50,433 nt of DNA. Origin: Halorubrum sp. 48-1-W. GTDB lineage: Archaea > Halobacteriota > Halobacteria > Halobacteriales > Haloferacaceae. Position 1 is the first letter of the stretch, and each line of letters opens with the position of its first letter. A program made the translations under genes and the position numbers. Of the stretch, positions 10,465 to 13,144 are shown piece after piece. The stretch covers positions 1-50,433 of the forward strand of contig NZ_QMIM01000034.1 in assembly GCF_003287355.1 (NCBI RefSeq). The letters run 5' to 3'. The notes under the pieces are model-generated. The model worked only from the letters and a program-made list of their open reading frames with translations. It searched no databases and had not been told where the DNA came from.

Positions 10465-10608
10465 ATCGGGAGAACGCCCAGGGGGACCAAAAGGGTCTGT
10501 ACAGCGGCCTCGACTACCGGGACCGGCCGGCAGCCGAACGGACTCTCCGCCCTCGTCCAAAGAAACTTTCTGAAATATATAGTTTAATTATCCTCAATAC
10601 TATAGGAA

Positions 10609-10617
10609 GGTATATGC
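10609..10617 (+). promoter_or_regulatory. Promoter of the DUF2589 operon
   Basis: GGTATATGC lies 28 nt before the ATG at 10646. A second A/T-rich block (GAAATATATAG, about 10573-10583) lies further upstream, so a dual start or an activator site is possible. The stretch 10561-10620 is much more A/T-rich than its surroundings. Confidence 0.55.
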
Positions 10618-10645
10618 TATCCGGCGCACATTGTGTGTTGGTACC

Positions 10646-11263
10646 ATGCCTAGCCCAAACTTCCCGGCAGAGCTCGCATCGATCCCGTACGAGGAGGTCA
10701 TTGGGACGCCGTTGCGTGCCGCCGTCGAGGCGAACGCGAGCGCGTCGATGACGGCGGCGGAGTTCATCCGGGAGGTCGGGTTCACCGAACCGGTCGTCGG
10801 CGAGGCGGAGCCGGTGACGGTGGACTTCGCCTACGAGCGCAGGGAGGTCGACCCGGAAACCGGCAGCGAGCGGATCGAGAGCCACACGATGACCGTGCCG
10901 TTGCTCCTTTTGATCCACGTGCCGTACTTCGAAGTGGAGACCGTCTCGATCGATTTCAACGTGAAGTTGAACTCGGTGGAGGCGTTCTCGCGCTCGACCG
11001 AGTTCGAGTTCGGCGTCGACAACGAGACCGAAGGCGGGTTCGACCTCGGGTTCATCGACGGCAAAACGAAGACGTCGGTCAACATGAGCTACCAGTCGTC
11101 GACCCGCCGGGGTCACGAGGTCGAGCGAACCTACGACCAGCGCGTCCACGTCGAGGCCGGGTCGATCGACCCGCCGGAGGGCGTCTCCAAGCTGTTCAGC
11201 GCGCTGGAGACGACGATCACCGACGTGACGGGCGACGGCGACGACGCCGGCGAAGAGGAGTGA
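10646..11263 (+). CDS. DUF2589 family protein A
   Basis: A 205-aa protein matching the DUF2589 layout: an amphipathic N-terminal helix region (IPYEEVIGTPLRAAVEANAS, then AAEFIREVGF), a first strand VTVDFAYE, and the hallmark hydrophobic patch TMTVPLLLLIHVPYFEVETV followed by SIDFNVKLNSV. It ends with the family motif DPPEGVSKLFSALETTI. No signal peptide, membrane helix or catalytic motif is seen; the fold looks like a beta-rich structural or assembly protein. The family has no known function. It heads a tight four-gene operon; the next gene starts 6 nt after its stop. Confidence 0.8.
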   Translation: MPSPNFPAELASIPYEEVIGTPLRAAVEANASASMTAAEFIREVGFTEPVVGEAEPVTVDFAYERREVDPETGSERIESHTMTVPLLLLIHVPYFEVETVSIDFNVKLNSVEAFSRSTEFEFGVDNETEGGFDLGFIDGKTKTSVNMSYQSSTRRGHEVERTYDQRVHVEAGSIDPPEGVSKLFSALETTITDVTGDGDDAGEEE

Positions 11264-11269
11264 CCCGGC

Positions 11270-12031
11270 GTGAGCCCGACCGACACGCTCGCTGACCTCC
11301 CGCTTTCGACGCTGTTCTCCGCGCCGCTGATCGCGGCGATCGACGCCAGCGCGCAGGCCCAGTCGGAGACGGTCGACCTCCTCCGAGAAGTCGGGTTCGA
11401 ACCGGACGGCACCCCGGCAACCGTGTCGTTCGAGTACGCGACGACGGACGTCGATCCCACAACGGGAGAACAGCGGCAGCGCCCGAAAACGCTCGACGTC
11501 CCGCTGTTGTTGTTCCTCTCGTTGCCGGAGCTCGTCGTTCACGAGGTCGAACAGACGTTCTCCGCGCGGATCGTGGACATCGAGGACGTCGAACGGGAGG
11601 GCGACGGCGACGACGCGGGAGACCACACGAAGTCCCCGTCGCTCCGCCCGCGCCGGCTCTACGTCGCGCCCGCCGGTCGGTCGGAGACGTTCGCGCGGCG
11701 GACGAAGACGACGTTCGACCTCGACATCACCATGCGCGCCGAGGTGGAGAACCGCTCGACCGGGACCGACCTGCTCGAGCGGTCGCTGATGACGACCGTC
11801 ACGGACGGCGACTCGGACGATCGGCGGGCGGGGGCGCCGACGGAACAGATGGAGACCGACCGGACGGAAGCCGACCTGACGGAAGCCGACCGGACAGAAG
11901 CCGACCGGACGAAAGCCGACCGACCGAGAACGAAGGAAGCGGAGATCCGGAAAGCGGCGGATGCCGAGAGGGAGCCGACCCGCCGGGAGACCGAAGACGA
12001 GCGATCGGCGACCGAGGAGGCGGACGGATGA
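11270..12031 (+). CDS. Divergent DUF2589-like protein B with charged C-terminal tail
   Basis: A 253-aa paralogue of the preceding protein. It has the same order of elements: LSTLFSAPLIAAIDASAQAQ, TVDLLREVGF, ATVSFEYATT, then KTLDVPLLLFLSLPELVVHE and strands ARIVDIEDV and KTTFDLDITMRAEV. It lacks protein A's PPEGVSKLF-type ending and instead carries a disordered tail from about residue 185 that is rich in Glu, Asp, Arg and Thr and has EADRT repeats. The start is GTG, 6 nt after gene A; its TGA overlaps the ATG of gene C (ATGA), suggesting coupled translation and fixed stoichiometry. The function is unknown. Confidence 0.75.
   Translation: MSPTDTLADLPLSTLFSAPLIAAIDASAQAQSETVDLLREVGFEPDGTPATVSFEYATTDVDPTTGEQRQRPKTLDVPLLLFLSLPELVVHEVEQTFSARIVDIEDVEREGDGDDAGDHTKSPSLRPRRLYVAPAGRSETFARRTKTTFDLDITMRAEVENRSTGTDLLERSLMTTVTDGDSDDRRAGAPTEQMETDRTEADLTEADRTEADRTKADRPRTKEAEIRKAADAEREPTRRETEDERSATEEADG
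11861..11920 (+). repeat. 15-bp coding tandem repeat in DUF2589-like protein B
   Basis: Four degenerate 15-bp units (CGGACGGAAGCCGAC type) encode RTEAD/LTEAD/RTEAD/RTKAD in the disordered tail. Confidence 0.8.
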
Positions 12032-12744
12032 CCGAACTCAGACACTTCCTCACGTCGCTCTTCGACGCCGTCTCGGAGGCGGAGACGCAAGCGCTTCTCA
12101 ACGGTCGGACGCGGCTCGAACGGATGGTCGAATCGGGACGGTTCCCCGACGACGTGAGCCTGCCCGTCTACCATGCGAACGAGCTCACGGTGTCGCTCGA
12201 CGTCGGACTCGAGGCCAAACACACGAAGACCGGGATCGAGCTGTTCGTCACGGAGCCCGGCGAGGGCGACGAGACGGCCCTCGAGTTCGACCTCGAAGTG
12301 TACGACTTCCTGGAGGCGACGGACCTCCACGAGGGCGGTGACCGACGGAAACCGCCACACGAGGCGGTCGACGTCCACGTCCCGCTGCGGGACCCGCCAG
12401 CCGGAGTCGATCCGGGCGTCTCCGTGAACGATCCCGAAGAGCCCATGGACCCGAAGGAGGCTCACGATCGGGAACGCGAGGGACGGGCGGAGGGCGGAGA
12501 CGATCGGTCGGAGACGGGAGGCGAGGAGACGAGGGACCATGGGACCGAAAACGAGGAGACCGGAAACGATGAGACCGAAAACGAGGAGACCGGGCGGAGC
12601 GGGGAGGAGAGCGGAGACGAACGGCGGACCCCCGAGCGGGGCCGCTCGAAACGACGGTTCGTCGGCGTCGACCTCCCGGAGGGCTGGCCCCTCCGGCGGA
12701 CGGGCGGGACCACCGAGGACGACGAGGCGGGGAGGAAACGATGA
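12028..12744 (+). CDS. DUF2589-operon protein C (unknown)
   Basis: A 238-aa protein of no family I can name. Residues 1-45 are helical (HFLTSLFDAVSEAETQALLN). A short beta domain follows (LPVYHANELTVSLDVGLEAK, then GIELFVTEP and ALEFDLEVYDF), resembling the beta strands of its neighbours. Residues from about 140 to 210 are a low-complexity acidic linker with ENEETG/NDETENEETG repeats. The protein then ends with a compact motif, FVGVDLPEGWPLRR, which looks like a docking or capping peptide. The gene overlaps both neighbours by 4 nt (ATGA), so it is translationally coupled to them. It shows no signal peptide, membrane helix or catalytic motif. Confidence 0.7.
   Translation: MTELRHFLTSLFDAVSEAETQALLNGRTRLERMVESGRFPDDVSLPVYHANELTVSLDVGLEAKHTKTGIELFVTEPGEGDETALEFDLEVYDFLEATDLHEGGDRRKPPHEAVDVHVPLRDPPAGVDPGVSVNDPEEPMDPKEAHDREREGRAEGGDDRSETGGEETRDHGTENEETGNDETENEETGRSGEESGDERRTPERGRSKRRFVGVDLPEGWPLRRTGGTTEDDEAGRKR
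12543..12593 (+). repeat. 30-bp-period coding repeat in protein C
   Basis: GACCGAAAACGAGGAGACCG occurs at 12543 and again 30 nt later, encoding the ENEETG units of the acidic linker. Confidence 0.75.
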
Positions 12745-13070
12745 GTGACGACACCGTCCGGGAGTACTTCGGGCCGCTGACGGCGAGCCAACGCGAGTCG
12801 TTGCGCGCGCGAATGGAACGATACCGCGACGGACTGGAGGGGAACGGCTACGAACTCGCCTTCGCGGAGGGGGTCGGCGGGCTCTTCGCCGGCGTCCTCG
12901 TCATCGACGACGAACGCGGACGGGCCGGGTTCCTCGAGGCGAACGGCTCGGTCACCTGGCTCGACGGGTCGACCGGCGGGCTCGGGGCGCTCGGGTCGGC
13001 GATCGCACAGAACCACACCGACGCGCTCGACTCGGCGATCGACGTCCCGGACGGCGTCGACATCGAGTGA
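12741..13070 (+). CDS. DUF2589-operon protein D (unknown, small)
   Basis: A 109-aa protein and the last gene of the operon; its ATG overlaps the stop of gene C (ATGA). The N-terminal half is helical and charged (YFGPLTASQRESLRARMERY). The second half alternates hydrophobic strands and glycines: FAEGVGGLFAGVLVIDDERG, AGFLEANGSVTWLDGSTGGL and GALGSAIAQNH. There are no cysteines and no catalytic pattern. Tight coupling to two DUF2589-type proteins suggests a shared complex. A hairpin follows the stop by 4 nt. Confidence 0.72.
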   Translation: MSDDTVREYFGPLTASQRESLRARMERYRDGLEGNGYELAFAEGVGGLFAGVLVIDDERGRAGFLEANGSVTWLDGSTGGLGALGSAIAQNHTDALDSAIDVPDGVDIE

Positions 13071-13074
13071 AGTA

Positions 13075-13095
13075 CCTCGGGGTCAAGCCCCGAGG
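13075..13095. terminator. Hairpin after the DUF2589 operon (terminator or IS-end-like palindrome)
   Basis: CCTCGGGG and CCCCGAGG form an 8-bp stem with a TCAAG loop, 4 nt after the operon's last stop and between convergent genes. It may end transcription. It also resembles the solitary hairpins at 22258-22277 and about 50376-50405, which look like IS200/IS605-family end palindromes. Confidence 0.55.
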
Positions 13096-13144
13096 CACTC
13101 GCTTTGATTATCTGTAGATCCGCGGGAACGCGGCGACGGACCGC

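What the first reader, a model, noticed from the sequence alone, without database searches (positions are those of the whole stretch)
10646..13070. Four-gene DUF2589 operon: candidate undescribed assembly system
Seen: two DUF2589-type proteins (the first canonical, the second divergent), a third protein with similar beta strands and a long acidic linker, and a small fourth protein. They are joined by a 6-nt gap and two ATGA overlaps behind one A/T-rich promoter, with a hairpin at the end. None has a signal peptide, membrane helix or catalytic motif. Established: DUF2589 is a domain of unknown function found in many bacteria. Inference: coupled paralogues of this type look like subunits of one cytosolic multi-protein particle, tube or scaffold with fixed stoichiometry.
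Basis: partly seen in the sequence, partly recalled or inferred. Interest (0 to 1): 0.78.

Follow-up and report, generated by a model that had tools for sequence, protein, structure and literature searches.

The report
Four-gene DUF2589 operon in haloarchaea
A block of four adjacent genes in a salt-loving archaeon is its version of an undescribed gene set that passes as a unit between bacteria and archaea and probably makes parts of one multi-protein particle of still unknown job.

Summary
Genes A (10646-11263), B (11270-12031), C (12028-12744) and D (12741-13070) form one operon; A and B are DUF2589 (86.5 and 43 bits), C and D match no family. It is not a local oddity. In 242 haloarchaeal genomes the DUF2589 pair occurs in 11, and D in the same 11. 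All 14 haloarchaeal operons inspected have A-B-C-D (5 genera, 3 families). C is homologous to a ~230-aa protein that follows DUF2589 throughout Bacteria and other Archaea, where a conserved operon DUF2589 / C-like / ~190-aa helical protein has moved horizontally as a unit, also between bacteria and archaea. A, B and C are variants of one subunit type: an N-terminal helix followed by beta strands. Prediction and covariation both give DUF2589 a ~35-residue-long, partly amphipathic beta-hairpin, a shape found in rings, tubes and pores, but no fold match is significant. Some bacterial copies sit beside murein hydrolases or lipases. No described system matches. My commitment: a hetero-oligomeric, non-secreted ring or tube, accessory in about 5% of species (confidence 0.4).

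The parts
10600..10645 (+). promoter region; TATA-like box GTATATGC at 10610-10617, about 30 nt before the ATG (leaderless transcript likely)
   Evidence: sequence; TATA-like element at a similar distance in most of 14 operons
10646..11263 (+). gene A, canonical DUF2589 protein, 205 aa
   Evidence: Pfam PF11655 86.5 bits; AF2 model pLDDT 67
10688..10780 (+). A residues 15-45: N-terminal alpha helix shared by DUF2589 and C-like proteins
   Evidence: AF2; alignments
10931..11155 (+). A residues ~96-170: region of the long beta-hairpin with alternating polar/hydrophobic residues; low confidence in the window's own model, placed by alignment to the bacterial model
   Evidence: AF2 of bacterial homologue; periodicity; covariation antidiagonal i+j=269/271
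11270..12031 (+). gene B, divergent DUF2589 paralogue, 253 aa, with acidic tail
   Evidence: Pfam PF11655 43 bits; haloarchaeal B a separate 100/100 clade
11856..11922 (+). 15-bp tandem repeats coding TEADR-type repeats in the B tail
12028..12744 (+). gene C, 238 aa; residues 1-73 homologous to bacterial C-like family; acidic low-complexity linker (in four other genera replaced by HHH_5/DUF4332-type helix-hairpin-helix repeats)
   Evidence: Pfam of orthologues; sequences
12522..12592 (+). 15/30-bp tandem repeats coding the acidic linker of C
12741..13070 (+). gene D, 109 aa, conserved family found only in the haloarchaeal operon
   Evidence: 54-87% identity in 7 orthologues; in the same 11 of 242 genomes as DUF2589
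13071..13099 (+). hairpin after D; not conserved in orthologues

Best explanation
The operon is the haloarchaeal, four-gene version of an undescribed operon that travels as a unit between bacteria and archaea (shown by comparison). A, B and C are three variants of one 'N-terminal helix + beta strands' subunit: A full length with a long hairpin, B without the hairpin tip, C cut down to helix and strands plus a variable tail (shown by sequence; the hairpin by prediction and covariation). Most likely they co-assemble inside the cell into one hetero-oligomeric ring or tube, in which the A helices pack together and the long A hairpins form a shared beta-barrel or wall; B and C cap or base it, and the C tail (helix-hairpin-helix repeats or acidic linker) attaches it to a partner; D is a haloarchaea-specific accessory (all inferred). 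It is an accessory, probably stress- or conflict-related function that in some bacteria is armed with envelope hydrolases (inferred).
For: Four genes kept as a unit in 14 of 14 genomes and D and DUF2589 in the same 11 of 242. In the genus the block is whole or wholly absent at one site: the flanking genes lie ~100 bp apart in most genomes without it. Core operon DUF2589 / C-like / ~190-aa protein: C-like in 89 and the third gene in 79 of 102 loci from many phyla. Distance matrices of the three proteins correlate at 0.82-0.91 over 74 loci, and the archaeon Methanoperedens shares 88/67/66% identity with a Geobacter MAG. Haloarchaeal C and DUF2589 both relate to C-like. Long hairpin 97-131/138-171 matches the strongest covariation antidiagonal and alternates polar and hydrophobic. 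Shape matches, all weak, are to ring, rod and pore subunits. No signal peptide or TM helix by hydropathy.
Against: No interface or complex was modelled. Mean pLDDT 67-68, with the hairpin tips under 50. No PDB fold match is significant (best Foldseek E 0.03 with TM 0.19; best Z 4.2), and the window's own A model matches nothing. Long hairpins can be artefacts of modelling an oligomer or a flexible loop as a monomer. The covariation signal is modest (z 2.45). Co-retention shows joint function, not physical assembly. Envelope hydrolases are next to only a minority of bacterial operons and I saw none next to the haloarchaeal ones.
Confidence: 0.4

Rival explanations
1. A small soluble heteromer (A/B/C/D) acting as a metabolic, sensory or stress accessory complex, without ring or tube formation; the hairpin is an interaction arm.
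For: Acidic soluble proteins; patchy, dispensable distribution; an A. fulgidus DUF2589 region (AF0414-AF0417) goes up on lactate (PMC3949148); D has no relative outside the haloarchaeal operon.
Against: Three paralogous subunit types and a ~35-residue two-stranded hairpin are unusual for a small enzyme-like heteromer; no ligand or catalytic motif found.
Confidence: 0.25
2. A membrane-perforating system: A is a beta-barrel pore former, helped by B and C; in bacteria it works with murein hydrolases and phospholipases to open or lyse cells.
For: Amphipathic hairpin of membrane-spanning length; weak shape matches to beta-barrel pores; neighbours PG_binding + VanY/M15-type, N-acetylmuramidase, M15 + patatin, PI-PLC. 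PG_binding_1 is the commonest family among 110 adjacent genes and is not among the 25 commonest in 99 distant control genes.
Against: No secretion signal; matches have TM about 0.2 and mostly reflect any long hairpin; most operons, and the haloarchaeal ones read, have no hydrolase; haloarchaea have no murein.
Confidence: 0.15
3. A piece of a phage tail or contractile injection machine.
For: One IMG/VR contig carries M15 + patatin + DUF2589 downstream of genes that look like a tail sheath and tube; phage-like genes upstream in L139; one BFVD viral protein shares the fold.
Against: A DUF2589 relative in only 1 contig of 2.9 million viral contigs with the profile-derived patterns and in 1 of 50,697 phage records; no sheath, baseplate or ATPase genes seen beside the haloarchaeal operons or most bacterial ones.
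Confidence: 0.08

Closest known systems
DUF2589 (Pfam PF11655)
   Same: A and B are members over the curated cut-off.
   Different: The family has no function; only one open-access paper in the library names it, and without a mechanism. The operon around it is not described there.
Undescribed bacterial/archaeal operon DUF2589 / C-like / ~190-aa protein (this work)
   Same: Order A then C, homologous C N-terminus, co-inheritance as a unit.
   Different: Haloarchaea have a second DUF2589 (B), lack the ~190-aa protein and add D; the C tail is acidic or helix-hairpin-helix instead of the bacterial C-terminal part.
Archaeoglobaceae-type operon (AF0414-AF0417 region)
   Same: Tandem DUF2589 A-B followed by a C-like protein.
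   Different: C' is ~140 aa; no D; B there is not shown to be the same duplication.
Ring and barrel proteins: FliF S-ring, flagellar rod FlgG, beta-barrel pores
   Same: Helix plus long beta-hairpin used for oligomeric rings, tubes or barrels (shape only).
   Different: No sequence relation and no significant fold match; those are membrane-associated or secreted.
R-body (RebB) and gas-vesicle operons
   Same: Operons of small paralogous self-assembling proteins (analogy from general knowledge).
   Different: No Pfam match of A-D to those families.

Membership tests
DUF2589 (PF11655) | profile score over curated cut-off of 23 bits | tested here: met
   A 86.5 and B 43 bits
DUF2589 (PF11655) | same test for C and D | tested here: not met
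   no match; C is only a distant relative of the N-terminal part through the C-like family
bacterial C-like family | homologous N-terminal helix + strands, encoded downstream of DUF2589 | tested here: met
   hhalign 72 columns collinear from residue 1, score 32.8 vs <=18.2 in 60 shuffles; position
bacterial C-like family | C-terminal part ending in L.PE | tested here: not met
   haloarchaeal C has an acidic or helix-hairpin-helix tail
beta-barrel pore-forming proteins | amphipathic beta-hairpin of membrane-spanning length | tested here: inconclusive
   alternation found, long hairpin predicted, tips low confidence
beta-barrel pore-forming proteins | shared fold with a known pore former | tested here: inconclusive
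   no match with E <= 0.001; best E 0.03, TM 0.19, Z under 5
beta-barrel pore-forming proteins | membrane insertion | not testable with these tools
   needs liposome assay
flagellar ring/rod proteins | fold match to FliF S-ring or FlgG | tested here: inconclusive
   Z 4.2 at 10.3 A (FliF) and 5.2 A (FlgG)
contractile tails / eCIS | sheath, tube, baseplate and ATPase genes in the cluster | tested here: not met
   none seen beside the haloarchaeal operons
known anti-phage defence systems | match to a PADLOC model | tested here: not met
   none for A-D
Trypco2 conflict adaptors (PF19631) | Pfam match of the C-like family | tested here: not met
   not among the listed matches of 42 C-like members; absent from G000 and 196 relatives
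R-bodies (RebB) and gas vesicles | Pfam match of A-D | tested here: not met
   none reported
FilR1-type sensor domain (PF08350) for D | profile similarity | tested here: inconclusive
   two FilR1 regulators hit the D profile at ~1e-4, profile-profile P only 0.017, no direct Pfam hit

The most novel reading that the evidence does not exclude
DUF2589 operons encode a minimal, horizontally mobile tube- or pore-forming protein machine shared by Bacteria and Archaea, built from three variants of one helix-plus-hairpin subunit, which some bacteria arm with murein hydrolases or phospholipases and which haloarchaea fitted with a second DUF2589 subunit and a new fourth protein.
Probability: 0.15. Interest if true: 0.85.

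Novelty: categorically new. Interest (0 to 1): 0.57.

Why it matters
No described system corresponds to this operon in Pfam, NCBIfam, PADLOC, PHROGs, the PDB (sequence and fold) or the open literature searched ('categorically new' here means no described counterpart, not a demonstrated new function). It links Archaea and at least half a dozen bacterial phyla, moves as a unit across domains, and its core subunit has a strongly conserved, unusual predicted architecture. It gives a defined gene set (DUF2589, the C-like family, the ~190-aa protein, B and D) for one simple experiment: purify and look.

Tried and rejected
Trypco2 adaptor: a weak hit (E 0.64) for one Archaeoglobaceae-type C' suggested it; no listed C-like member matched and no genome near had it: dropped. 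D as a FilR1-type sensor: two profile hits at 1e-4, but profile-profile P 0.017; a first comparison used wrong-strand translations for some loci and was redone: not claimed. PDB sequence searches: nothing usable for A, DUF2589, C-like or D. Fold searches: PDB and pdb_via nothing significant; the window's A model matched nothing. Viral origin: two scans with single proteins found nothing and the profile scan found one contig. The terminal hairpin as part of the system: not conserved. Direct profile comparison of C with A, and of C with the Archaeoglobaceae C', gave nothing; the link runs through the bacterial C-like family. Complex prediction could not be run.

Full report
Observation. The window at 10646-13070 holds four adjacent plus-strand genes exactly as described: A 10646-11263, B 11270-12031 (GTG start, 6-nt gap), C 12028-12744 and D 12741-13070, the last two joined by ATGA overlaps. 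A and B are DUF2589 by Pfam (86.5 and 43 bits; cut-off 23); C and D match no family in Pfam, NCBIfam, PADLOC or PHROGs. The genome has no other DUF2589 gene. A TATA-like box lies about 30 nt before the first ATG, as in most of the orthologous operons, so one leaderless transcript is likely; the hairpin after D is not conserved. All four proteins are acidic, lack Cys and lack transmembrane or signal segments by hydropathy. That the organism is a haloarchaeon is my inference from the acidic proteins and the relatives; the window's name is not given.

Retention as a unit. In 242 genomes of the class, DUF2589 occurs in 11, always as a tandem pair, and the D profile finds the same 11 genomes plus two weak hits in other proteins. 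Every one of the 14 haloarchaeal genomes I read, in 5 genera and 3 families, has A-B-C-D in this order. Within the genus the operon sits between a 2-hydroxyacid-dehydrogenase-like and a cystathionine-gamma-synthase-like gene (named by inspection); most other genomes have these two genes about 100 bp apart, two have an antiporter-like gene there instead, and where the operon is present all four genes are. So the block is gained or lost whole. Genomes are related, so these counts are not independent events.

Relatives. A scan of 84,980 species genomes with a DUF2589 profile gave 119 confirmed loci, 80 of them kept. Clustering all ORFs of 102 loci showed that DUF2589 is followed by a ~230-aa protein ('C-like') in 89 loci and by a ~190-aa protein in 79, in Bacteroidota, Pseudomonadota, Chloroflexota, Actinomycetota, Bacillota, KSB1, Methanothrix, Methanoperedens and others. 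Distances of the three proteins correlate at 0.82-0.91 (Mantel p 0.001; 74 loci), and the archaeon Methanoperedens shares 88, 67 and 66% identity with a Geobacter MAG, so the trio moves as a unit between domains. Archaeoglobaceae-type genomes (identified by matching the A. fulgidus AF0414-AF0417 DUF2589 region of PMC3949148, an inference) have A-B-C', and C' is clearly C-like (P 4e-11). Haloarchaeal C aligns to C-like over its first 73 residues (P 3e-4 with the whole protein; score 32.8 with the N-terminal part alone, against at most 18.2 in 60 shuffles), and DUF2589 itself aligns to the C-like N-terminus (score 39.4 against at most 22.0). A, B and C are therefore variants of one subunit type. 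B forms its own fully supported haloarchaeal clade, so the A/B split is older than these genera. The C tail is interchangeable: helix-hairpin-helix repeats in four other genera, acidic repeat-rich linker in the window's genus.

Structure. AlphaFold2 of window A (43 sequences) gave helix 15-45 and a hairpin 58-85 with good confidence but left 111-160 undefined. A bacterial homologue (Limnobacter humi) gave the same start plus one very long hairpin, strands 97-131 and 138-171, with tips under pLDDT 50. Two further readings of the alignment support it: mutual-information covariation is strongest on the antidiagonals i+j = 269 and 271, as that hairpin requires (z 2.45), and residues 115-148 alternate polar and hydrophobic; the haloarchaeal alignment does so around 115-130 and 135-150. 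AlphaFold2 used much the same alignment, so the support is not fully independent. Fold searches of the PDB found no significant match; the nearest, all weak, are subunits of rings, rods and pores. In the viral library one unnamed protein has the same fold.

Context in bacteria. Next to DUF2589 operons or tandem pairs lie PG_binding proteins, in part with VanY/M15-type domains (loci of Chloroflexota, Pseudomonadota, Actinomycetota), N-acetylmuramidase (a gut contig and a deltaproteobacterial plasmid), M15 peptidase plus patatin (16 Chryseobacterium loci), PI-PLC, and a papain-type peptidase. PG_binding_1 is the most frequent Pfam family among 110 adjacent genes (4 members) and is not among the 25 most frequent in 99 distant genes of the same loci. 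This is suggestive, a minority of loci, and not seen in haloarchaea.

Mechanism. I commit to a hetero-oligomeric intracellular ring or tube of A/B/C subunits, the A hairpins forming its wall or barrel, C as adaptor through its variable tail, and D as a haloarchaeal accessory (confidence 0.4). Shown: gene set, homology, co-retention, transfer as a unit. Supported by prediction: helix plus long hairpin. Inferred: oligomer, geometry, role. Rivals are a soluble accessory heteromer (0.25), a pore or lysis system (0.15) and a phage-tail derivative (0.08).

Verdict. The main addition is that the operon is one form of an undescribed, mobile, cross-domain operon whose core is DUF2589 plus a homologous C-like protein.

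Noticed in passing
L146 1166-3109 and L147 322-2202: Two genomes of the genus carry a ~640-aa cation/proton-antiporter-like gene (by inspection) in the slot between the two flanking genes where others carry the DUF2589 operon; the slot is empty (~100 bp) in most genomes.
   Followed up: partly
L040, L043, L045, L046, L156-L158, gene C: C carries HHH_5/DUF4332-type helix-hairpin-helix repeats in four other genera; B in L045, L046 and L157 has an extra C-terminal helical-looking segment (FTVSELQ... / YTVSELRE...).
   Followed up: partly
L061 and L062 (Vibrio plasmids), L063: Gammaproteobacterial and deltaproteobacterial plasmids carry a variant: two different DUF2589-type proteins in tandem, the second with a long tail, and a conserved 91-94-aa protein.
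   Followed up: no
L159 (IMGVR_UViG_2588254255_000001): A Chryseobacterium-like prophage contig has tail-sheath-like and tube-like genes followed by M15 peptidase, patatin and DUF2589.
   Followed up: partly
L074 from about 4770: A 1976-aa protein follows the DUF2589 operon and a small 148-aa protein in a CSSED10-310 genome; its type was not tested.
   Followed up: no
L154 2882-3670, L155 2183-3028: Two FilR1-type haloarchaeal regulators match the D profile weakly (1e-4).
   Followed up: yes
L049 7588-7979 and L126 9349-9893: B split into two ORFs in one Archaeoglobaceae-type genome and the ~190-aa gene split in one Chryseobacterium: frameshift, decay or sequencing error.
   Followed up: no
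window 11856-11922 and 12522-12592: 15-bp tandem repeats inside the coding tails of B and C extend acidic low-complexity peptides.
   Followed up: partly
Archaeoglobus fulgidus AF0414-AF0417: PMC3949148 reports this DUF2589 region specifically up-regulated during growth on lactate.
   Followed up: partly
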